Positions 1 through 21,287 of a stretch of 21,287 nucleotides of DNA are shown in pieces. The position numbers and the translations under genes are program-made. The notes under the pieces were generated by a model, which was given only the letters and a program-made list of their open reading frames with translations, did no database searches and was not told the DNA's origin. Source of the DNA: a virus. Location: IMG/VR virus record IMGVR_UViG_3300036791_000774, positions 1 through 21,287 of that record; one strand, given 5' to 3'. Positions within the stretch are counted from its first letter, which is position 1. Each line of letters starts with the position of its first letter.

Positions 1-74
1 CCTCCTGGGTGGCGATAGACGCCTGGTCGGGCCTACCTTGCCCGCCGTAGGCCCGCCAGGTCGACATAGAGAAT
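1..74. repeat. Left copy of the 74-bp terminal overlap
   Basis: Bases 1-74 match 21214-21287. Positions 1-66 and 69-74 are identical, and 67-68 read ta here but ac in the right copy. The Rpf-like reading frame passes through the joint without interruption. The simplest reading is therefore a circular or circularly permuted genome cut open by the assembler, not a physical terminal repeat. The mismatch changes one codon synonymously (Ser) and the next from Met (here) to Leu (right copy). Confidence 0.9.
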
Positions 75-478
75 TGCAGACCGCCGAAGTACCCATTGCC
101 GGTGTTGGCGGCCGGATTGCCACCCGACTCATAACGGGCAATACAGGACCACGGCCAACGCCACCCGCTCGAGGGCTTGGGTGCCGCCACCGTCGCCGGC
201 GTCGTGGGCGCCTGGGGCAGCCGAGGCGCCCGGGGCTTAGACGTGACGACGGTGGCAGCGGGCCGGCGTGCCGCGAGAGACGACGGAGACCCTGGCAGCA
301 CGCGCGGCGGGGGTGGCACCACGGTGGTGGGTATGAGCGGGTGGCGCCAGACGGGGTCGCCTTGGGGCAAGGGTGGCCCGGCGGCCACTTCGGCGGTCGG
401 GTTCGAGGGGACGACGAGGACGGCTACCCCGGTGCCAAAGGTGACCGCGGCCACCGCGGACAGGGCCAGGCGGGCCAT
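1..478 (-). CDS. Rpf-like transglycosylase, N-terminal 159 codons (continues at 21140-21287)
   Basis: The ATG at 478-476 overlaps the upstream TGA (TGATG). Joined to 21140-21213 across the circle junction, the gene encodes 183 residues. Residues 1-25 are a hydrophobic signal peptide or membrane anchor. Residues 26-108 are a Pro/Ala/Thr-rich linker of the kind found in wall-spanning proteins. Residues 109-183 form a resuscitation-promoting-factor/lysozyme-like domain: RYESGGNP with the expected catalytic Glu117, then [21 protein letters not shown] and AERVLAGQGW. Two cysteines (112 and 181) could form the family's disulfide, although Cys112 sits earlier than the usual CESGGN cysteine. Rpf proteins cleave peptidoglycan and wake dormant actinobacteria. 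Here the gene lies among early genes, not beside the lysin. The domain call is firm; the role in infection is unknown. Confidence 0.88.
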
Positions 479-645
479 CAGCGGGCGTCCTGGTCGTAGA
501 ACAGGGCTTTGGCGGCCTCGACGATCTCGGCGGGCGGGTCGTCCATGTAGGGGGCGTTATCGGCGATGAGCCGGCACTCTTTGCAGAGCAGGTCGTTGAG
601 TTCGGCCCGCCGGCCGCAGCGGGTGATGCAGCGGGGCCACATCAT
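478..645 (-). CDS. Small zinc-finger-like protein (55 aa)
   Basis: The start ATG at 645 overlaps the stop of the 111-aa gene (ATGA), and the stop TGA overlaps the Rpf-like start, so translation is probably coupled on both sides. The protein begins [16 protein letters not shown] and carries a CX3C pair and a CX2C pair (CKEC), a plausible four-cysteine zinc site in its first half. The second half is acidic and helical ([15 protein letters not shown]). It resembles the small zinc-binding ORFs common in early regions of actinophages. No family is recognised. The call rests on clean overlaps and the Cys pattern. Confidence 0.7.
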
Positions 646-977
646 GGCCGCCCCGGCTGGTACATGAGCGGGTCGCCGAGTTCGGCGAGGACGTGGGCGA
701 GCGCGCGGCGGGCGGGGTCGTGCATGAGGGGCCGCTTGCGTTGCACCTCGTCGCGGGCCAGGTCGGCGATGAGGCGGCGGATTCCGGCCCGGTTGATGTA
801 GGTACCTTCCCCTAGGGACGGGTCGAGTTTGTCGTAGGGGATGAGGTGGTATTGGGGGCGGCCGTGGAACTGGTTGACGACGGTGCAGAAGTCTTCGCCT
901 AGTTCGATGACGACGCCGCCGCGGCCGACCTCGCCGTCGAGGGACTCGAAGACGGCGGACCCGAGGCGGGGGATCAC
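642..977 (-). CDS. Hypothetical early protein (111 aa)
   Basis: The gene starts at the ATG at 977, four bases inside the end of the Bet-like gene, and ends in an ATGA overlap with the next small ORF. The N-terminal half looks like a small beta-rich domain (GRGGVVIELGEDFCTVV, then YHLIPYDKLDP). The second half is helical with basic patches (RRLIADLARDEVQRKRP). No signal peptide or membrane segment is present. I do not recognise a family. Its place directly after the annealase suggests an accessory role in DNA metabolism, by context only. Confidence 0.7.
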   Translation of the reverse strand: MIPRLGSAVFESLDGEVGRGGVVIELGEDFCTVVNQFHGRPQYHLIPYDKLDPSLGEGTYINRAGIRRLIADLARDEVQRKRPLMHDPARRALAHVLAELGDPLMYQPGRP

Positions 978-1771: not shown

Positions 1772-1923
1772 GCGGCGGCCCTCTGCAGCTTGTGGCGGAC
1801 GGCTTCGATGCCGGCCCAGAACAGCTCCAGGCCGACGCCGTCGCCGGCTTCGATCAGGTGGCGGCGCAGTTCGTAGAACTGCGACGGCAGGTCGAGGACG
1901 TGGGTCCTCAGCTGGTCGTTCAC
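1768..1923 (-). CDS. Small helical protein (51 aa)
   Basis: A GTG at 1923 overlaps the stop of the excisionase-like gene (GTGA), and the gene ends in another GTGA overlap with the Bet-like gene. The protein (begins MNDQLRTHVL, ends AVRHKLQRAAA) is predicted almost wholly helical, with no membrane segment or cysteines. A longer frame runs upstream to 2130, but that part would cross the promoter and the excisionase frame, so it was not used. Function unknown. The tight overlaps on both sides are the main support. Confidence 0.68.
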   Translation of the reverse strand: MNDQLRTHVLDLPSQFYELRRHLIEAGDGVGLELFWAGIEAVRHKLQRAAA

Positions 1924-2099
1924 GACGCCGCTTTGGGGGTGAGCAGGTCGTCGACGTCGATCCGGCGGAAGCGGACCACGTCGCCGATCTGCACCGAGGG
2001 CAGGACGCCGTCGGCTTTCCAGCGCCAGACGGTGCGGACCGAGACCCGGGCTCGTTCGGCCACCTCCGGCGCCGTGAGTAGTTCCTCGAATGTTGGCAT
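1920..2099 (-). CDS. Excisionase-like / AlpA-MerR-type DNA-binding protein
   Basis: This small (59-aa) winged-helix protein is the first gene of the leftward train. The motif TAPEVAERARVSVRTVWRW followed by DGVLPSVQIGDVVRFRR is typical of the excisionase/AlpA helix-turn-helix family (HTH_17). Members act as recombination directionality factors or small transcription regulators. It is divergent from the repressor-integrase operon, where an Xis or Cro-like protein is expected. The ATG at 2099 is preferred because a good promoter (-35 at 2137-2132, -10 at 2114-2109) places the transcript start near 2102, making the mRNA almost leaderless. A GTG at 2105 would give 61 residues. Excisionase versus Cro-like function cannot be settled from sequence. 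Confidence 0.82.
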   Translation of the reverse strand: MPTFEELLTAPEVAERARVSVRTVWRWKADGVLPSVQIGDVVRFRRIDVDDLLTPKAAS

Positions 2100-2108
2100 A
2101 CTCACAAA

Positions 2109-2172: not shown

Positions 2173-2433
2173 ATGTCAACTACTGTCCCGGTGTGGACGT
2201 TGGGCGACCGGCTCCGTAAGGCCCGGCTGATGGCCGGCCTGCATCAGCGTGACGTGGCCGAGTACCTGGGCCTGTCGAGCGGCGCCGTCGGCATGTACGA
2301 GATGGACGTGCGGACCCCGAAGCTAGGTGTCCTCCGGTTGTGGGCCATGCGCTGCGGGGTGCCGCTCGAGTGGCTTCAAACCGGCCAGGTCGACCCCACG
2401 TCAACCGGATGGTTTAACGCGGTGGCGGCATGA
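2173..2433 (+). CDS. XRE-family transcription regulator (86 aa)
   Basis: The ATG at 2173 is chosen because the HTH begins soon after it and a -10-like element lies directly upstream. The longer upstream frame crosses the divergent promoter. Residues 10-62 form a Cro/CI-type helix-turn-helix: LGDRLRKARLMAGLHQRDVAEYL, then GLSSGAVGMYEMDVRTPKL. No oligomerisation or peptidase domain follows. The protein ends FNAVAA, a hydrophobic and alanine tail somewhat like ssrA/ClpXP degrons (speculative). It is the first gene of the rightward lysogeny operon and overlaps the next gene by ATGA. It is a likely phage repressor or co-regulator of the divergent promoter. Confidence 0.85.
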   Translation: MSTTVPVWTLGDRLRKARLMAGLHQRDVAEYLGLSSGAVGMYEMDVRTPKLGVLRLWAMRCGVPLEWLQTGQVDPTSTGWFNAVAA

Positions 2434-2822: not shown

Positions 2823-3671
2823 GTGCTGCTCACTGACGCCGTCCCCGCCTACCTTGCCGACCGTCTCGCCCGCGGCGAGCTTCGTCCCAACAGTGTCCAT
2901 CAGGTCCGTTGGCGTCTCAGCGTGCTGGTAAAGGCGTGCCCGCCCGGTCTGCACCTCGCCGACCTGGACCGCTACCATGTCGCCGCCTGGCAGGCGGCCA
3001 TGGTCGAACAGCGGCCGGCGACGCGGCGGGCGGGCGTGTCGGCGGTACGGACGTTCTGCCGATGGGCGCAGGCCGAGGGCCTGCTGGAGGGCGACCCGAC
3101 CGCCAGGGTGGGCCGGGTGGTCGAACCGAGACGGGACACCCGGGCGCTGTCGGCGGGCAAGGTAGCCCGCCTGCAGTTGGTGCTACCGGATCTGCGGGCG
3201 CAGGTGATCGTGGCCTTGATGTTCGGGGTGGGGTTGCGCTGCTGCGAGGTGGCCCGCCTCCACGTGGACGACTACGACGGCGACCCAGACGGCCCGCAGG
3301 TGCGGGTGGTCGGCAAGGGCGACCATGAGCGGCGAGTGCCGGTACCGTTGGCGGTAGCCGCCGTCCTCGACGACTGGTTGGCCGACCGGGGCCGGGGTCC
3401 GCTGGTGGGCCTGTCGGCGGCTCGCCTGTCGGTGCTGGTGTCGGGTTGGATGGACCAGGCCGGGCTGAAGCGGCGGGCCTATGACGGTGTGTCCGCCCAC
3501 GCCCTGCGGCATACGTTCGCCTCGGACGTTTTGGACCGCTGCGGGAACGTGCGGGTCGCCCAGGCGCTGCTGGGTCACCAGTCGCTGGCGACCACGCAAA
3601 GGTATCTGCGGGTGGCGTCCATGGACCAGATGAGAGCCGCCGCCGACCCGGACTGGCCGCCCGCCGCCTAG
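2823..3671 (+). CDS. int: Tyrosine integrase
   Basis: This 282-aa phage integrase (XerC/D-like, without a long arm-binding domain) starts at a GTG behind AGGAGG. Residues 1-90 form the SAM-like core-binding domain (YLADRLARGEL, TRRAGVSAVRTFCRWAQ). The catalytic domain has the full set of active-site residues: Arg139 (GVGLRCCEVARL), Lys165 (GKGDHERRVPVP), His226 and Arg229 (HALRHTF), His252 (LLGHQSLATTQRY) and the nucleophile Tyr261. It recombines phage attP with a host attB. The best attP candidate lies just upstream at 2741-2767, and a likely excisionase is encoded at 1920-2099. Its TAG overlaps the stop of the opposing 37-aa ORF (shared CTAG), leaving no room for a terminator. Confidence 0.95.
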   Translation: MLLTDAVPAYLADRLARGELRPNSVHQVRWRLSVLVKACPPGLHLADLDRYHVAAWQAAMVEQRPATRRAGVSAVRTFCRWAQAEGLLEGDPTARVGRVVEPRRDTRALSAGKVARLQLVLPDLRAQVIVALMFGVGLRCCEVARLHVDDYDGDPDGPQVRVVGKGDHERRVPVPLAVAAVLDDWLADRGRGPLVGLSAARLSVLVSGWMDQAGLKRRAYDGVSAHALRHTFASDVLDRCGNVRVAQALLGHQSLATTQRYLRVASMDQMRAAADPDWPPAA

Positions 3672-4056: not shown

Positions 4057-4722
4057 TCAGGGCAGCGTTTCTTTTCTCCACGGCGCCGAGGGGGCAGAGA
4101 TGTCCTTCCACCAGTGGTCGACCTTGCCGTCGCCGCGTTCGCGGTAGACGTGATGGGTGTTCTCGGCGAAATATGACGTCACGTTCTCATCCTCCAGGTT
4201 GGCGGGCGGGCCGGCACCACCGGCCATAGCTAAGACTTCGTCTATCGGGAACCCGGGGCCGCAGTCGGTGTGGCCACCGCCGGCGGCGCCCAGGTCGACG
4301 TGTTGGCAGACACCGCGGCTCGAGCCTTGCGCCTGGCCCGGGGTGAGCTTGACGAGCGGGATGCCGAAGGCGGCGGCCTCCTCGGCGATCCAGGCGGCGG
4401 TGTTGGCCAGCATGCCCTGGTGGCGGTCCCATTCGGCGGGCGTCCAGGCGGCGAAGGCGCACAGCTCGGCCGAGGTGGCCACCGGGTTGAAGTTGCCCTG
4501 CGTCCAGGATTTGTTGGCCCGGGTCACGTACTCGCCGACCGTGTTGGCGGTGTCGTCTATCCCCACCTGGGACGACACCCCGCTCGAGGGGTTGGCGAAG
4601 AAGCTGCCGAGGCTCTGGTAGGTGAGGGCGCCCTCGGCGGTGTGCAGGACGATGAGGCGCACCGCGGCGCCGCCGCGCGACGAGTAGTTAGGCGACGGTA
4701 TCCAGACCCGCCGTAGCGTCAC
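4057..4722 (-). CDS. Endolysin, N-acetylmuramoyl-L-alanine amidase
   Basis: The chosen start is GTG 4722, which overlaps the stop of the 25-aa ORF (GTGA). The longer frame to 4911 would run back through that ORF and the tail gene. The 221-aa protein has an Amidase_2/PGRP fold: VLHTAEG (His27), an HQGMLANTAAWIAEEA helix, CQHVDLG (His141) and GHTDCGPGFP (Cys154). His27, His141 and Cys154 are the likely zinc ligands, as in T7 lysozyme. The enzyme cleaves the amide bond between muramic acid and the peptide stem. About 55 C-terminal residues after the catalytic domain (YFAENTHHVYRERGDGKVDHWW) may bind the cell wall. There is no signal peptide, so export depends on a holin. Small holin candidates follow. 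Confidence 0.9.
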   Translation of the reverse strand: MTLRRVWIPSPNYSSRGGAAVRLIVLHTAEGALTYQSLGSFFANPSSGVSSQVGIDDTANTVGEYVTRANKSWTQGNFNPVATSAELCAFAAWTPAEWDRHQGMLANTAAWIAEEAAAFGIPLVKLTPGQAQGSSRGVCQHVDLGAAGGGHTDCGPGFPIDEVLAMAGGAGPPANLEDENVTSYFAENTHHVYRERGDGKVDHWWKDISAPSAPWRKETLP

Positions 4723-4796
4723 TCGTCGGGCGTGGTCGGCGGGTGGGACGGCTCGTCGTCGGGTTCGGGTACGGGCTCGGGTTCGGGCGTGGTCAT
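4719..4796 (-). CDS. Short Pro/Glu-rich peptide (25 aa)
   Basis: ATG 4796 is preceded by AAAGGAGC, a good ribosome-binding site, and the stop overlaps the lysin GTG. The product begins MTTPEPEPVPEPDDEP and is acidic and proline-rich with no fold expected. It may be a real structural or lysis-associated peptide, or a translated leader that delivers ribosomes to the weakly marked lysin start. The second view is attractive because the lysin has no Shine-Dalgarno sequence of its own. Confidence 0.5.
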   Translation of the reverse strand: MTTPEPEPVPEPDDEPSHPPTTPDE

Positions 4797-4813
4797 GTTT
4801 GCTCCTTTGTGTG

Positions 4814-5620
4814 TTAGACGGTGTCGAAGCTGACGCCGTCGAGGCCCCACTGGGTGTTACCGGTCCCCGATATGGTGACCGTCCCGGTGTTGGCCACGAT
4901 GGTGGCCGCAACCACGATGGTGCCGCCGTTGTTGAGGTAGGCGGGGAAACGGGCCGTGTTCACCGGCCGGTAGCCGACCGGCAGGGTGAAGGCGGCGGTG
5001 TTTTGGGTGCCGCCGGCGATGATGCCCCGCAGGTAGACCCGGGTGCCGACCAGTTTGTAACCGCCGGGGGAGCCGGCCAGGTCGGCCCAGCCGTTTGTGT
5101 AGGCGGGCGCCTGCCAGGTGCCGACCGGCTGGGGGATCGGCACGGCCAGCTGCTGGGCCGGGCGGGCGTCGGTGATGTTGCCCTGGGTGACCGCGGCGGA
5201 CCCGCCGGGGACGAGCACCTGGCCGAGGAGCACGGTCCCCGCCGGCAGGGCCGGGGCTACGGGGCTGGCGGCGGGTACCCCGGCCACGGTGTCGAATATG
5301 AAGTCGTTGCTGGCGCCGCCGTCTAAGTCGGTGCCCCGGGGCCGGCAGATGATGAGGTCGATACGGTTCTGGCCCGACCCGGGGGCGGCCGCGATGACGA
5401 CCGTTTCGACGGCGTCGGAGACGCACAGGGTGGACCCGGTGGCGTTCTGGGATGGGGCGGCGACGGTGCCGGGCGCGACGTTGACCGACATGGTTCCGGC
5501 CACGGCGGTGAGGGCGCAGCCGCTCGAGGCCGGGTTGGGCCACAGCGACGAAATGAGGTGGCGGTCAACCGAGGCGGCGTAGCTTCCGGCCTGTTCCCAG
5601 AGCGGCGTATATCGGGTCAT
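4814..5620 (-). CDS. Minor tail / receptor-recognition-type protein (268 aa)
   Basis: The ATG at 5620 has GGAG about eight bases upstream and follows the hub gene by four bases. The N-terminal part (YTPLWEQAGSYAASVDRHLI) is the kind of adaptor that opens many actinophage tail-tip proteins. It is followed by a beta-rich region (GTMSVNVAPGTVAAP, NRIDLIICRPRG, GQVLVPGGSAAVTQGNITDARP) and a C-terminal jelly-roll-like domain (YLRGIIAGG, AFTLPVGYRPVN, WGLDGVSFDTV). This last domain resembles the heads of tail fibres that contact the cell surface. It is the last tail gene before lysis. No receptor can be inferred. Confidence 0.72.
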   Translation of the reverse strand: MTRYTPLWEQAGSYAASVDRHLISSLWPNPASSGCALTAVAGTMSVNVAPGTVAAPSQNATGSTLCVSDAVETVVIAAAPGSGQNRIDLIICRPRGTDLDGGASNDFIFDTVAGVPAASPVAPALPAGTVLLGQVLVPGGSAAVTQGNITDARPAQQLAVPIPQPVGTWQAPAYTNGWADLAGSPGGYKLVGTRVYLRGIIAGGTQNTAAFTLPVGYRPVNTARFPAYLNNGGTIVVAATIVANTGTVTISGTGNTQWGLDGVSFDTV

Positions 5621-16009: not shown

Positions 16010-16180
16010 TCAGGGACGCTCGGTCACTTCGGCGGCGACCCCGAACGCCAGCAGGCCGACCCCGCCGGCCACCAGCCCCGCCCACACCGCCAGCAGCCCG
16101 AACCCGACCGCCATGGCGGCCACCCCGGTCAGCTGGACGATCACTGGCCCATATCGTCGCATATCGCGCCCGGTTCTCAT
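16010..16180 (-). CDS. Two-helix membrane protein between terminase and portal (56 aa)
   Basis: ATG 16180 overlaps the large terminase stop (ATGA), and the gene ends two bases before the portal start. The product begins MRTGRDMRRYGPVIVQL, with basic residues ahead of two hydrophobic Gly/Ala/Leu-rich stretches (about 15-31 and 33-49) and a short acidic end (EVTERP). It is therefore a small inner-membrane protein. It resembles a holin in topology but lies in the packaging module. Function unknown. The overlaps on both sides make it a credible gene. Confidence 0.65.
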   Translation of the reverse strand: MRTGRDMRRYGPVIVQLTGVAAMAVGFGLLAVWAGLVAGGVGLLAFGVAAEVTERP

Positions 16181-17493
16181 AGCACCTGCGGTTCGCCGGC
16201 GCCGGCCTTCACCAGCCCATAATGGGCCAACGTGACCGCCACCAGCGGGGAGATGTCGCCGCCGGTCTTGCGCGCCCACGCCCAGGCGTCCCCGAGCGGC
16301 CGTTTGCGGGCCTGGCCGGCGGCGGTGTTTAGGACCGGCTGCTCCAGGTGGCGGACCTGGCCTTCGACCACCGCATCGAAGAACTGCCCGCAGGCCTGAG
16401 CGTACTCCCGGGCTGTGACCGTCTCGGTGGACACGCCCGCCGCGGCCAGATCTACCAGCAGGGCTCCGGCCGGGCTGCCCGGGTCGATGATCGTCGGCCA
16501 CGGCTGCCACCGGCGTTGCAGGTCCTGAAGGCGGCCCACGCACCAGTCGGTGTTGGGCCGGTGGTCGACCACCTCGAGGTGGCGGCGCCGGTCGGCCCGC
16601 CAGCCGGCCACGCCGATGCTGGCGGCGCCGCGGTCGGGGGTGACATCCAGGCTGAAGCAGGGCAGGCCGGCCAGCTGCGACCTCGAGTCGCGGCAGGCCG
16701 CCCACGACGTCGGGTCGATCACCGGGCGCCCACCGGAGGCCCGCCGGTTCAGGTACGCCCGCGCGAACTCGCCCGGCTCCATAGCATCATGGTCGGCCCG
16801 GATGACCTCCTCGGTCACCGTGTGGCCCAGCGCAGGCATGCACTTCCACCACGTCGCCGGGTCGTCCGGGTCATCATCATCGGAGGCCGACCACTCGAAG
16901 TAGCAGACCCCCTGCCGCTCGTCGGCCTCCACCCGGGCCCGGCCGTCGTCGACCCGGTCGTGCAGGAAGAACGACTCGTCGGTGCCCATCGTCGACACCA
17001 CCCAGATCTGGGCGTTCGGCCGGGTCAGCATGGCCGGGCGGAAGGCCTGGGCTAGCCGCTCATCGCGTTGGGCGAACGCCTCGTCGATGATCCCCAGGTC
17101 GAGCGTCTGGCCGTGCCCGGACGACTCGCCCGAGGCGGTGATACCCACCGTCGAACCGGTCTGTTTGAAAACCCAACGCTCGAGGCCGGTCTGACGGCGC
17201 ACCGTGAACAGGCGGCGCAGCGGGGTCGTCGAAAGAATGTCGGCCTGCTCCTCCCACTTCGCCCGGGAGTTGTTGCGGTCCTGCGCCGCGTACAGGGTCC
17301 GCTGGCGGTCGCCCCAGTTCAGCGACCGATCCAGTTCGACCACCAAGACCACGGTCGTCTTGCCCGACTGGCGGGGCACCGTGACCCGCACCTCCCGGAA
17401 GGCGGGCCGGCCGTCGGCCAGCAGCTCGCCGGCCACGTCCACGACCAGCGCCTGCCAGGGCATGAGCGGCTGGCCCATCAGCTCGGCCAGCAA
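16177..17493 (-). CDS. terL: Terminase large subunit
   Basis: The 438-aa protein from TTG 17493 has the packaging ATPase and nuclease domains: PLMPWQ near the start, Walker A VPRQSGKTT (39-47), Walker B LGIIDEAF (Asp137, Glu138), motif III VVSTMG (165-170), and RNase H-like acidic residues Asp283 (SLDVTPDRG), Asp337 (TIIDPGSPAG) and Asp402 (LGDAWAWA). It cuts concatemers and drives DNA into the head. The start is doubtful. In-frame codons upstream read ATPRSPDRVTTGRRLAL, which looks coding, yet no ATG, GTG or TTG occurs between the TGA at 17604-17602 and the TTG. The true N-terminus may be longer. Confidence 0.93.
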   Translation of the reverse strand: MLAELMGQPLMPWQALVVDVAGELLADGRPAFREVRVTVPRQSGKTTVVLVVELDRSLNWGDRQRTLYAAQDRNNSRAKWEEQADILSTTPLRRLFTVRRQTGLERWVFKQTGSTVGITASGESSGHGQTLDLGIIDEAFAQRDERLAQAFRPAMLTRPNAQIWVVSTMGTDESFFLHDRVDDGRARVEADERQGVCYFEWSASDDDDPDDPATWWKCMPALGHTVTEEVIRADHDAMEPGEFARAYLNRRASGGRPVIDPTSWAACRDSRSQLAGLPCFSLDVTPDRGAASIGVAGWRADRRRHLEVVDHRPNTDWCVGRLQDLQRRWQPWPTIIDPGSPAGALLVDLAAAGVSTETVTAREYAQACGQFFDAVVEGQVRHLEQPVLNTAAGQARKRPLGDAWAWARKTGGDISPLVAVTLAHYGLVKAGAGEPQVL

Positions 17494-19403: not shown

Positions 19404-19849
19404 CGGGGGGTCAGTTCGCCGGGGCAGGGAGCGAACAGCCAGTCACCCAGGACGGCGTCTTCGGTTTCGATCCAGCCGCGACCCTCGCATACGCAGTCGC
19501 CGTTGTGACGCGGCCGCTTGATGGCCCGGTCGTGAGCTATCTCTACGTCGCTCACCAGGTCGTGATGTCGATGGCAGTACCAGAGGATCGGTCCGTACTC
19601 GGCCAGTTGTCCGTATTTGGCCCGGGGCAGAGCGTGGTGGTATTCGGCGCCACTATCAGGGCAGTCAGGCCAGGCGCAGCGCCTGTCGCGCGCCGAGCGG
19701 GCGGGTCGGCGGGCCATCTCGTCTACCGTGCGGCGCGACCGGGGCGGTAGATACGCCAGGATCCGGGCCGGCAGGATCCCTGTGAGTTGCTCGGGGGCCG
19801 CAGGCGGGCGGTCCAGTCCGTCAGGATCGAATAGCGGCGGATTGCTCAT
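19400..19849 (-). CDS. HNH-like zinc nuclease (149 aa)
   Basis: A proline-rich N-terminus is followed by an HNH/recombination-nuclease-like core: Cys58 and Cys63 (CAWPDC), EYHHALPRAKYG (His71-72), then YCHRHHDLVSDV (Cys92, His95-96). Another CVCEGRGW and a CPGEL cluster near the end suggest a second zinc site. Cys-Cys-His-His cores of this type occur in phage HNH nucleases and NinG-like proteins. It overlaps the replication-type gene by 29 bases. A nuclease role in recombination or replication is likely; the exact family is unsure. Confidence 0.72.
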   Translation of the reverse strand: MSNPPLFDPDGLDRPPAAPEQLTGILPARILAYLPPRSRRTVDEMARRPARSARDRRCAWPDCPDSGAEYHHALPRAKYGQLAEYGPILWYCHRHHDLVSDVEIAHDRAIKRPRHNGDCVCEGRGWIETEDAVLGDWLFAPCPGELTPR

Positions 19850-20357
19850 GGCCGATCACCTCGTTCAGTGTCAGATCTGACACCGCCCGCTGGTGCGAGC
19901 AGTGCCCCACGACCGCGTCTCCGCGCCACAACGTCCCATGCTCGTCACAGTGCGGGCACGCCACGATGGCGGCGGGGTCACGCGCCGCCTCCCAGGCGGC
20001 GGCGCTTGACCCCCGCTCCTTGGTTTTCTCCAAAGACTCCTTAGTCGTGACCCTGATGCATGAGGTGGTAGTGACCTGTTCACTAGGTGGTATGCGCCAG
20101 TGCACTAGGTTCAGGCACCAGGTTGATGCCCTTCCGGGCGATTTGACCACCGACAGGTACCCGTTATCCACAAGGCGCTGCAGCGCCCGGTGGGCGGTCG
20201 TGTAGTTGACTTTCATATCAGCGGCGACTCGCCCGACGGCTATCCGGGCGATCCCATGCTCGCGGTCGGCGCGGCAACAGACCACCACAAGGGCGTGCTT
20301 GGCCGTGTGGTCAATGTCCCAGACGTCGAGGGCGGCCATAACGGCGCGAATGTTCAT
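19821..20357 (-). CDS. Winged-helix replication-initiator-like protein (178 aa)
   Basis: The ATG at 20357 overlaps the stop of the 50-aa ORF. Residues 5-80 form a winged helix typical of phage replisome organisers and Rep proteins (HTAKHALVVVCCRADREHG, ARIAVGRVAADMKVNYTTAHRAL, LVDNGYLSVV). The linker contains VTTTSCIRVTTKESLEKTKE. The C-terminus has a zinc-ribbon-like CPHCDEHGTLWRGDAVVGHC. The gene's own DNA carries 22-bp-spaced repeats and a perfect DnaA box, like the lambda O gene, whose origin is internal. No helicase or helicase loader is visible, so the host may supply one. The initiator role is inferred. Confidence 0.72.
   Translation of the reverse strand: MNIRAVMAALDVWDIDHTAKHALVVVCCRADREHGIARIAVGRVAADMKVNYTTAHRALQRLVDNGYLSVVKSPGRASTWCLNLVHWRIPPSEQVTTTSCIRVTTKESLEKTKERGSSAAAWEAARDPAAIVACPHCDEHGTLWRGDAVVGHCSHQRAVSDLTLNEVIGHEQSAAIRS
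20059..20124. repeat. Three iteron-like repeats, 22-bp period, inside the replication gene
   Basis: Segments beginning CATGAGGTGGTA (20059), CACTAGGTGGTA (20081) and CACTAGGT (20103) are spaced exactly 22 bases apart, two turns of the helix, and a weaker CACCAGGT follows at 20116. The first two share AGGTGGTA, and the last two share CACTAGGT. The stretch just left (about 20020-20045) is richer in A and T than its surroundings. Repeats of this spacing are typical of initiator-binding sites. Confidence 0.55.
20164..20172 (+). other. Perfect DnaA box
   Basis: TTATCCACA is an exact consensus DnaA box, 40 bases from the repeats at 20059-20124 and inside the initiator-like gene. A protein resembling DnaA domain IV, the part that binds this sequence, is encoded at 20503-20805. 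Chance occurrence is possible but unlikely at this place in such GC-rich DNA. Confidence 0.6.
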
Positions 20358-20506
20358 TCGGGGTCCTTAGTGGCGAAGGCGTGCAGGATGGTGAGCATTT
20401 CGTCCACCGGGGCGATCATGGCGAGCCGGTAGGCGTGCGAGCGGTGGCGGATACCGCCGGGCTCGGGTTCTTCGAAGTCAAACCAGACGGCGGCCAAGTC
20501 GCTCAC
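20354..20506 (-). CDS. Small protein between DnaA-like and initiator-like genes (50 aa)
   Basis: GTG 20506 overlaps the upstream stop (GTGA), and its TGA overlaps the ATG of the initiator-like gene. The product begins MSDLAAVWFDFEEPEPGG and continues RSHAYRLAMIAPVDEMLTIL, a mixed acidic and helical protein without cysteines or membrane segments. It has no recognised family. Its place within the replication cluster suggests a supporting role, by context only. Confidence 0.65.
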   Translation of the reverse strand: MSDLAAVWFDFEEPEPGGIRHRSHAYRLAMIAPVDEMLTILHAFATKDPE

Positions 20507-20805
20507 CACAGGCTGCCCTGGTTGCCGTTGTAAAGCCGGTGTCTGAGCGCTTCGACGACATCGGGGTTCGCCAGCTTTGCTTTACGCGAGAACGTCGTCG
20601 CCGAGCCATGTTGGCGGCCGAGCACCTCGGCGACAGTCACCCATGACAGGCGGCAGTCGTCGTGTAGCAGCAGGATGGCGGCGAGGCGGGCCTCGGGTGC
20701 CGGCTTCGATTGGCGGTGCTTCAAGTCCTTGACGCTCACGTGGTAGGCGTCGGCGACCGTCTTCAGCACAATCTCGGGGTTGAGCGGGAACAGCGGGTCG
20801 GTCAC
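20503..20805 (-). CDS. Stand-alone DnaA domain IV-like protein (100 aa)
   Basis: The GTG at 20805 overlaps the VRR-NUC stop; the longer frame to 21132 overlaps that gene and is excluded. The sequence follows the DnaA C-terminal DNA-binding domain: VADAYHVSVKDLKHRQSK, PEARLAAILLLHDD, LSWVTVAEVLGRQHGSATTFSRKA and VVEALRHRL. In DnaA the last part (GGRDHSTV) contacts the DnaA box; here it reads GRQHGSAT, similar but not identical. No AAA+ domain is present. It could bind the TTATCCACA site in the nearby initiator gene or compete with host DnaA. The domain similarity is good; its action is inferred. Confidence 0.75.
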   Translation of the reverse strand: MTDPLFPLNPEIVLKTVADAYHVSVKDLKHRQSKPAPEARLAAILLLHDDCRLSWVTVAEVLGRQHGSATTFSRKAKLANPDVVEALRHRLYNGNQGSLW

Positions 20806-21173
20806 CTGAGAATCCTGGCGATGTCGTCGAGGTCCGCCGGGCGCCACACGTACGCCTCGGCGCCGGTGCCGCGGAACAGGTCCAGCCAGGCCAGCTGCTC
20901 GTGGGTGAGTCGGCCCCGCCGGGCTTTCAGTTCGGCCACCACCAGGCGGTCGCGACGGATGAGGAGGATGTCGGGGAAACCGGCGCCGTCGCCGGAGACG
21001 GGTGTCCGCCAGCCGTGCGAGGTGCGGGCCGGGCGGAAGTGGGTGGACGTCCAGCGCAGCAGTTTGGCCAGCTCGAGGACCTGGTCGGTGAAGGACGCCT
21101 CGGTGACCTCGGGCGCCGGGTCGTTCGTCCACTGCGCCACTACAGCCCGCACATACGGCTGGTGTTCGGCCAT
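20802..21173 (-). CDS. VRR-NUC family nuclease (123 aa)
   Basis: This is a compact PD-(D/E)XK nuclease of the virus-type replication-repair family. GFPDILLIRRDRLVVAELK holds the catalytic Asp and the Glu-x-Lys pair (about residues 67-84), followed by LTHEQLAWLDLFRGTGAEAYVW. Such nucleases act on branched or nicked DNA, often as Holliday-junction resolvases. It overlaps the end of the Rpf-like gene by 34 bases and the DnaA-like gene by four. It may serve the Bet-like annealase in the same early train, because no lambda-type exonuclease is visible. The family call is firm. Confidence 0.88.
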   Translation of the reverse strand: MAEHQPYVRAVVAQWTNDPAPEVTEASFTDQVLELAKLLRWTSTHFRPARTSHGWRTPVSGDGAGFPDILLIRRDRLVVAELKARRGRLTHEQLAWLDLFRGTGAEAYVWRPADLDDIARILR

Positions 21174-21287
21174 GCCGCCCAGCCCTGGCCGGCTAGGACT
21201 CTTTCGGCGACGGCCTCCTGGGTGGCGATAGACGCCTGGTCGGGCCTACCTTGCCCGCCGTAGGCCCGCCAGGTCGACAACGAGAAT
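21140..21287 (-). CDS. Rpf-like transglycosylase, C-terminal part (continues from 1-478)
   Basis: From the right end the frame reads [15 protein letters not shown], then EAVAERVLAGQGWAAWP and NTSRMCGL, ending at TAG 21142-21140. Codon phase matches the left-end fragment exactly when bases 1 and 21214 are taken as the same position. The circular gene therefore encodes 183 residues. The end contains Cys181, a likely disulfide partner. The VRR-NUC gene starts inside this gene in another frame. The first residues differ from the left copy (Leu instead of Met at residue 138). Confidence 0.88.
   Translation of the reverse strand, partial: FSLSTWRAYGGQGRPDQASIATQEAVAERVLAGQGWAAWPNTSRMCGL
21214..21287. 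repeat. Right copy of the 74-bp terminal overlap
   Basis: This repeats bases 1-74 with a two-base difference (ac for ta at the seventh and eighth last-but-six positions, 21280-21281). It closes the genome into a circle of 21213 unique bases. The variant gives the residue more common in Rpf domains (LQFSLSTW). Confidence 0.9.

What the first reader, a model, noticed from the sequence alone, without database searches (positions are those of the whole stretch)
1..478. Secreted or anchored Rpf-domain protein in the early region
The circular gene (478 to 1 and 21287 to 21140) encodes a signal or anchor, a Pro-rich linker and an Rpf domain with the catalytic Glu. Rpf motifs are known in some mycobacteriophage tape measures. 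Here it is a separate exported protein, expressed with recombination and replication genes and far from the lysin. It might wake dormant hosts, remodel the wall of lysogens, or block later phage entry. The usual CESGG cysteine is shifted to four residues earlier (C112, YESGG).
Basis: partly seen in the sequence, partly recalled or inferred. Interest (0 to 1): 0.68.

Follow-up and report, generated by a model that had tools for sequence, protein, structure and literature searches.

The report
Phage-encoded exported Rpf-type wall enzyme
A small temperate phage, probably of actinobacteria, carries among its early genes its own exported version of the bacterial "wake-up" cell-wall enzyme Rpf, in a variant whose two conserved cysteines have both moved four residues, which suggests that some phages manage host dormancy or wall growth with an enzyme of their own.

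Summary
The gene runs 478->1, then 21213->21140 on the minus strand (contig ends overlap by 74 b, 2 mismatches) and encodes 183 aa: hydrophobic N-terminus, Pro-rich linker, PF06737 (Rpf) domain with the catalytic Glu. Two related phage contigs carry 76-78% identical full-length proteins in the same early slot, without a join. Selection is purifying on the N-terminus and enzyme domain, relaxed on the linker. A close homologue's domain is modelled with the RpfB fold (Z 16.1, 0.7 A). The slot lies behind a divergent repressor/excisionase pair, among recombination and replication genes. A divergent Rpf-like protein holds the equivalent slot in a sister phage; other relatives have neither. The "shifted cysteine" is half of a coordinated move: both disulfide cysteines are displaced by four residues, in 10 of 80 viral domains (window not counted) and 0 of 107 bacterial ones. 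Standalone phage Rpf genes are not new (prophi79-1 gp102, Weasels2 gp46), but I found no paper treating them as exported early factors or describing the displaced pair. Best reading: an early exported muralytic enzyme that keeps the infected cell's wall growth-competent. That function is inferred, not shown. New variant of a known kind.

The parts
1..478 (-). Rpf gene, first 478 b of the coding sequence (ATG at 478-476); continues at 21213
   Evidence: PF06737 7e-16
21140..21213 (-). Rpf gene, last 74 b including the stop (21142-21140)
   Evidence: C-terminus matches uninterrupted homologues L001 and L002
407..469 (-). Residues 4-24: hydrophobic signal or anchor segment (cleaved or not: undecided)
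   Evidence: hydropathy 2.3 over 16 residues; near-invariant in three phages
164..337 (-). Residues 48-105: Pro/Ala/Thr-rich linker, relaxed selection
1..151 (-). Rpf domain from residue 110 (ends at 21143 across the junction); catalytic Glu117 at 128-130, displaced Cys112 at 143-145; Cys181 at 21149-21151
   Evidence: fold of the L002 homologue
21214..21287 (.). Terminal repeat of 1-74 (2 mismatches): contig overlap that closes the circle
481..648 (-). Small Cys-containing ORF whose stop overlaps the Rpf start (TGATG); no Pfam match
642..977 (-). 111-aa ORF, no family; 87% identical homologue in L002
974..1771 (-). RecT-type annealing protein
   Evidence: PF03837 4e-15
1920..2105 (-). Excisionase-type helix-turn-helix protein, first gene of the leftward operon
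2173..2433 (+). Repressor-type HTH protein, divergent from the excisionase (start inferred)
   Evidence: HTH_3 5e-11, PHROG 2328
20802..21173 (-). VRR-NUC nuclease gene, overlaps the Rpf gene's end by 34 b
   Evidence: PF08774 1.9e-6
19821..20357 (-). Probable replication initiator (weak)
   Evidence: PHROG 270 1.1e-3; 44% identical homologue behind Rpf in L001
4057..4839 (-). Separate endolysin of the phage
   Evidence: PHROG 12609 2.6e-22

Best explanation
The gene encodes an exported (signal-peptide or membrane-anchored) Rpf-type peptidoglycan-cleaving enzyme, made early after infection or induction from the leftward operon opposite the repressor, and held near the membrane face of the wall by a flexible linker. 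Gentle local cleavage by it keeps, or returns, the infected actinobacterial cell to a growth-competent state while the phage replicates; a separate endolysin does the final lysis. Shown: the ORF, its architecture and conservation, the Rpf fold of a close homologue, the position in the operon, the displaced Cys pair. Inferred: export, enzyme activity, early timing and the anti-dormancy role.
For: PF06737 over the cut-off; Rpf fold of L002's domain, pLDDT 96.2, Z 16.1 to RpfB; catalytic Glu kept in all aligned rows; purifying selection on the N-terminus and domain; gene order xis-RecT-ORF-ORF-Rpf-VRR-NUC; same kind of slot in L001, L002 and, with a divergent Rpf-like protein, L051; RecT on the same strand within 1.4 kb in 5 of the 5 records that have RecT, of 50 Rpf-bearing records; a Cys pair in 73 of 74 short ORFs and 0 of 6 tape-measure-size ORFs fits export of the short ones. 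Host Rpf loss lowers infection by two mycobacteriophages (PMC12908700, passage), and phage WC1 infection raises host rpf transcripts, which its authors suggest may prevent dormancy (PMC10986025, passages).
Against: No activity, transcript or export data. Early timing rests on gene order only, since all genes from excisionase to endolysin share a strand. At least seven relatives whose early region is held lack any Rpf-like gene, so the function is dispensable. In some phages the separate Rpf gene lies a few genes from the endolysin (BRock, Alone3), which fits a lysis role there.
Confidence: 0.42

Rival explanations
1. Lysis accessory: an exported muralytic enzyme that accumulates before lysis and weakens the wall so that the endolysin finishes faster.
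For: Rpf-type enzymes cut peptidoglycan (named family knowledge); BRock and Alone3 carry their separate Rpf gene a few genes from the endolysin.
Against: Here the gene is among recombination and replication genes, with integrase and repressor between it and the endolysin.
Confidence: 0.2
2. Released wake-up factor: the secreted enzyme acts on neighbouring dormant cells and makes new hosts available.
For: Rpf was found as a secreted factor that resuscitates dormant cells (PMC1796659 and PMC1084345, passages); a V-A-A-like signal-peptidase site at 31-33 is conserved in form (my reading).
Against: The first 47 residues are conserved beyond what a signal peptide needs, which fits an anchor as well; benefit to neighbours' phages is a shared good.
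Confidence: 0.15
3. Lysogenic conversion: the prophage expresses the enzyme and changes wall growth or dormancy of the lysogen.
For: The phage is temperate by gene content (integrase, repressor, excisionase). Patchy carriage resembles accessory genes.
Against: The gene sits inside the operon that starts opposite the repressor, and its start overlaps the previous gene's stop, leaving no obvious own promoter.
Confidence: 0.1
4. Superinfection exclusion: the enzyme alters the wall so that later phages inject poorly.
For: An anchored wall-active protein made early would be in the right place.
Against: Nothing in the neighbourhood points to it; host Rpf loss lowered, not raised, infection in the report of PMC12908700 (passage).
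Confidence: 0.07
5. Virion-borne entry enzyme, as the tape-measure Rpf domains of mycobacteriophages.
For: Tape-measure proteins are the commonest annotation in the listed phage hits; the TM4 tape-measure hydrolase motif aids infection of stationary cells (PMC1796659, passages).
Against: Separate gene outside the tail module with an export segment and a Cys pair; 6 of 6 tape-measure-size ORFs with the domain lack both Cys. The window's own tape measure matches only tape-measure families and nothing in Pfam.
Confidence: 0.06

Closest known systems
Actinobacterial resuscitation-promoting factors (M. tuberculosis RpfB, RpfC, RpfE; PF06737)
   Same: Domain, catalytic Glu, fold, export-type N-terminus, one Cys near helix 1 and one in the C-terminal tail.
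   Different: Both cysteines displaced by four residues; encoded by a phage; not the LysM, DUF348 or other modules of many host Rpfs (domain remark partly recalled).
Rpf domains in mycobacteriophage tape-measure proteins (e.g. DrLupo, Giles)
   Same: Phage-encoded Rpf domain.
   Different: Those are part of a very long virion protein and, in the 6 such rows examined, have no cysteines; this one is a short exported protein.
Standalone Rpf genes of other phages: prophi79-1 gp102, Weasels2 gp46, Shagrat gp107, BRock gp43
   Same: Short separate gene with an export-type N-terminus and an Rpf domain, some near DNA-metabolism genes.
   Different: Canonical cysteines; BRock and Shagrat proteins carry a C-terminal LysM-like part (my reading); different phage lineages and neighbourhoods.
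LysM-Rpf proteins of L108-L111, L113, L120, L124 (viral contigs)
   Same: The same displaced Cys pair, WPNTSRMCG-type tail.
   Different: LysM domain upstream of the Rpf domain (scored in L108 and L111) instead of the DPVWRHP segment and linker; no integrase found in their records.
Divergent Rpf-like proteins of L051 and L187-L195
   Same: In L051 an early slot between an excisionase and a replication initiator; anchor, linker, C-terminal domain with CE motif.
   Different: Below Pfam's cut-off in L051 (24.7 against 27 bits); no NTGNG loop; first Cys at the usual E-1 position.

Membership tests
Rpf / PF06737 transglycosylase-like | Sequence match over the curated cut-off | tested here: met
   59.1 bits against 27 on 159 of 183 residues
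Rpf / PF06737 transglycosylase-like | Catalytic Glu at the end of helix 1 | tested here: met
   Glu117 aligns with the invariant Glu of all rows
Rpf / PF06737 transglycosylase-like | Rpf fold | tested here: met
   Tested on the 78% identical L002 homologue: pLDDT 96.2, Z 16.1, 0.7 A over 76 residues to RpfB
Rpf / PF06737 transglycosylase-like | Cysteine pair at the canonical positions (conserved in most, not defining: tape-measure members lack it) | tested here: not met
   Both cysteines displaced by four residues; 10 of 80 viral and 0 of 107 bacterial rows share this. A reason to call it a variant
Rpf / PF06737 transglycosylase-like | Secreted or membrane-associated | tested here: inconclusive
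   Hydrophobic N-terminal segment; no signal-peptide predictor available
Rpf / PF06737 transglycosylase-like | Muralytic and resuscitating activity | not testable with these tools
   Needs purified protein
Phage endolysin | Lies in the lysis module | tested here: not met
   A distinct endolysin lies at 4057-4839; the Rpf gene is between RecT and VRR-NUC
Virion-associated lysin (tape-measure Rpf) | Domain inside a tail protein | tested here: not met
   Separate 183-aa ORF outside the tail genes

The most novel reading that the evidence does not exclude
A phage-associated branch of Rpf with a relocated disulfide serves as an early, exported growth factor of the virus: it holds or brings the infected (or neighbouring) actinobacterial cells out of dormancy so that the phage can replicate. 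The displaced bond tunes the enzyme, for instance for activity or redox control unlike the host's, and distinct Rpf variants have been recruited to the same genomic slot more than once.
Probability: 0.25. Interest if true: 0.8.

Novelty: new variant of a known kind. Interest (0 to 1): 0.52.

Why it matters
Dormancy can shelter bacteria from phages, and Rpf enzymes end it in actinobacteria. A phage that makes its own exported Rpf early would make the question whether viruses control host dormancy directly testable: the gene can be expressed, deleted and assayed. The displaced cysteine pair is a natural experiment on a bond that is conserved in Rpf and reported necessary for full activity (PMC4648573, passages). 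If active, such enzymes might also help to culture dormant actinobacteria.

Tried and rejected
Chance ORF: rejected. Virion or tape-measure origin: rejected as the likely reading (separate gene, export segment, Cys pair).

Bacterial source of the displaced-Cys form: sought, not found. A DNA pattern for WPxTxxMCG in 396 Actinomycetota genomes gave 4 matches, none in an Rpf gene; that pattern would also miss L001, whose tail reads RCG. Of 35 domains in the 30 best-scoring loci of the same 396 genomes all 35 are canonical, read by eye; 121 of the 396 have some Rpf match. Some of these loci overlap the 107. Absence from bacteria is therefore not proven.

Single origin of the displaced pair: a tree with the four Cys columns removed needs 2 changes, and again 2 when L150 and L188 are left out; starred branches do not rule out one origin. 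Only 69 columns, so unresolved.

Structure of the divergent kind: pLDDT 64.8 and no useful fold match; its link to Rpf rests on the sequence profile (2.2e-6 to RpfC). The Cys-Cys distance in the good model could not be measured, since no coordinates are laid in the Python box.

Literature: 9 searches. None of the listings shows a paper on a standalone exported phage Rpf in an early region or on a displaced Rpf Cys pair. Two actinophage papers, PMC13313380 and PMC10023795, hold none of the words Rpf, resuscitation or transglycosylase in the main text; PMC12090717 on soil Rpf has no 'phage' or 'virus'.

Rows dropped before the counts: L003 and L004 (the window itself), L043, L106, L107, L119, L183, L151, L166, L167 (copies). 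Searches examined 50 of the 62 loci first listed (left out: L109, L116, L118, L127, L139, L149, L155, L170, L175, L180, L190, L195).

Full report
OBSERVATION. The minus-strand ORF from 478 is open to the left edge of the contig. The contig ends share 74 bases with 2 mismatches, giving a circular unit of 21213 b; across the junction the ORF ends at 21140 and encodes 183 residues. The record (G000, 21287 b) is classed linear in IMG/VR, so the join rests on the overlap and on homologues. Two other viral contigs, L001 and L002, carry uninterrupted genes 76% and 78% identical over the whole length, including the last 24 residues that are read across the junction. Pfam PF06737 is matched at 7e-16 on the part left of the junction.

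ANATOMY. Residues 4-24 are hydrophobic (16-residue mean 2.3). The N-terminal 47 residues, with a conserved DPVWRHP at 41-47, are alike in all three phages. A Pro/Ala/Thr-rich linker (48-105) follows, then the Rpf domain (110-183). Nei-Gojobori counts over the three pairs: N-terminus pN 0.09-0.13 against pS 0.31-0.49; domain pN 0.11-0.13 against pS 0.40-0.65; linker pN 0.20-0.41 against pS 0.26-0.50. Both ends are kept by selection while the linker drifts, as expected of a tethered or exported enzyme. No signal-peptide predictor was on hand; anchor and cleaved signal both remain possible.

CYSTEINES. In RpfC a disulfide joins Cys15, next to catalytic Glu16, to Cys76, and replacing one or both cysteines is reported to impair activity (PMC4648573, passages). 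In the window protein the first Cys is four residues earlier and the second four residues later. Among 80 viral domain rows (copies and the window removed), 63 have the canonical pair, 10 the displaced pair, 6 no cysteine, and 1 (L188, the divergent kind) only the first; no viral row mixes the positions. All 107 bacterial rows have the canonical pair, 8 of them with a third Cys at E-5. The six without cysteine are all in ORFs of 1000 residues or more (tape-measure size); the short ORFs have a pair in 73 of 74. The displaced form was not found by a pattern search of 396 Actinomycetota genomes (4 matches, none in an Rpf gene), nor among 35 domains in the 30 best loci of a profile search of the same genomes. 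Trees without the four Cys columns need two changes for the displaced group; one origin is not ruled out.

FOLD. The domain of L002, with an alignment of 44 sequences from loci, is modelled at pLDDT 96.2 and matches RpfB (4emn) at Z 16.1, rmsd 0.7 A over 76 residues, and RpfC and RpfE. I did not model the joined window protein, which no single stretch of the window encodes.

SURROUNDINGS. A repressor-type gene (+, about 2173-2433) and an excisionase-type gene (-, 1920-2105) are divergent; a tyrosine integrase is at 2823-3671. Leftward from the excisionase come RecT, a 111-aa ORF, a small ORF whose stop overlaps the Rpf start (TGATG), the Rpf gene, a VRR-NUC gene overlapping its end by 34 b, a weakly DnaA-C-like ORF and a probable replication initiator; then HNH and methyltransferase genes and the large terminase at 16177-17493. 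The endolysin is at 4057-4839. The genes from excisionase to endolysin are on one strand, so early timing is inferred from order.

RELATIVES. L001: repressor, excisionase, a PHROG 10048 protein, Rpf, replication initiator. L002: RecT, the 111-aa ORF, a different small ORF, Rpf, a DNA methyltransferase. So the Rpf gene is kept while its neighbours change. L051 has, between an excisionase and an O-like replication initiator, an anchor-linker protein with a divergent domain (CEEGG motif), a kind related to RpfC at 2.2e-6 by profile. A scan for it returned 10 contigs including L051's own; three of them (L187, L189, L192) have terminases 68-69% identical to the window's. Relatives of which a stretch of early region is held but that show neither kind: L013, L029, L041, L046, L059, L097, L102. 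The gene is thus an accessory that recurs. Of 50 Rpf-bearing viral records 5 have RecT (L002's among them), and in all 5 RecT is on the same strand 407 to 1326 b away; two of the five (G437, G442) look like near-copies.

PRECEDENTS. 162 of 50,697 phage records hold a match. In the 60 listed rows tape-measure proteins are the commonest annotation, but separate short genes occur: BRock gp43, Weasels2 gp46, Shagrat gp107 (annotated glycosyltransferase), prophi79-1 gp102 (annotated RpfC). A standalone phage Rpf gene is therefore not new. The viral-contig scan found 264 contigs with a relative, of which the best 80 were kept.

MECHANISM. I favour an exported early muralytic enzyme that keeps the infected cell's wall growth-competent. 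Host Rpf matters to phages: reduced infection of Rpf-deficient mycobacteria is reported in a meeting summary (PMC12908700, passage), and host rpf genes rise during WC1 infection, which the authors suggest may be driven by the phage to prevent dormancy (PMC10986025, passages). The TM4 tape-measure hydrolase motif helps infection of stationary cells (PMC1796659, passages). These make the role plausible; nothing here demonstrates it. Lysis help, a released wake-up factor, lysogenic conversion, exclusion and virion entry are ranked as rivals.

VERDICT. Observation confirmed with corrected coordinates; interpretation partly supported; a new variant of a known kind, the new points being the paired cysteine displacement and the recurrent early slot.

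Noticed in passing
1-74 and 21214-21287: Contig ends repeat with 2 mismatches; the record is classed linear in IMG/VR, probably because the repeat is not exact.
   Followed up: yes
338-358: A DPVWRHP segment (residues 41-47) right after the hydrophobic part is invariant in three phages; role unknown.
   Followed up: no
L007 5914-6420: Rhodococcus phage Shagrat gp107 is annotated glycosyltransferase but is an Rpf-domain protein with a C-terminal LysM-like part.
   Followed up: partly
L051 10692-11249; L187-L195: A divergent Rpf-like family (CEEGGW, no NTGNG loop) with anchor and linker in about 21-kb phages, mostly below Pfam's cut-off in the records scored.
   Followed up: partly
L203, L209, L213, L217, L223, L230, L244, L274: Eight Streptomyces-type bacterial Rpf domains have a third Cys at the E-5 position besides the canonical pair.
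   Followed up: no
L108-L111, L113, L120, L124: LysM-Rpf proteins with the displaced Cys pair in viral contigs up to 114 kb without a detected tyrosine integrase (LysM scored in L108 and L111).
   Followed up: partly
20503-20817: A 104-aa ORF resembles the DnaA C-terminal helix-turn-helix (2.3e-5, below Pfam's cut-off).
   Followed up: no
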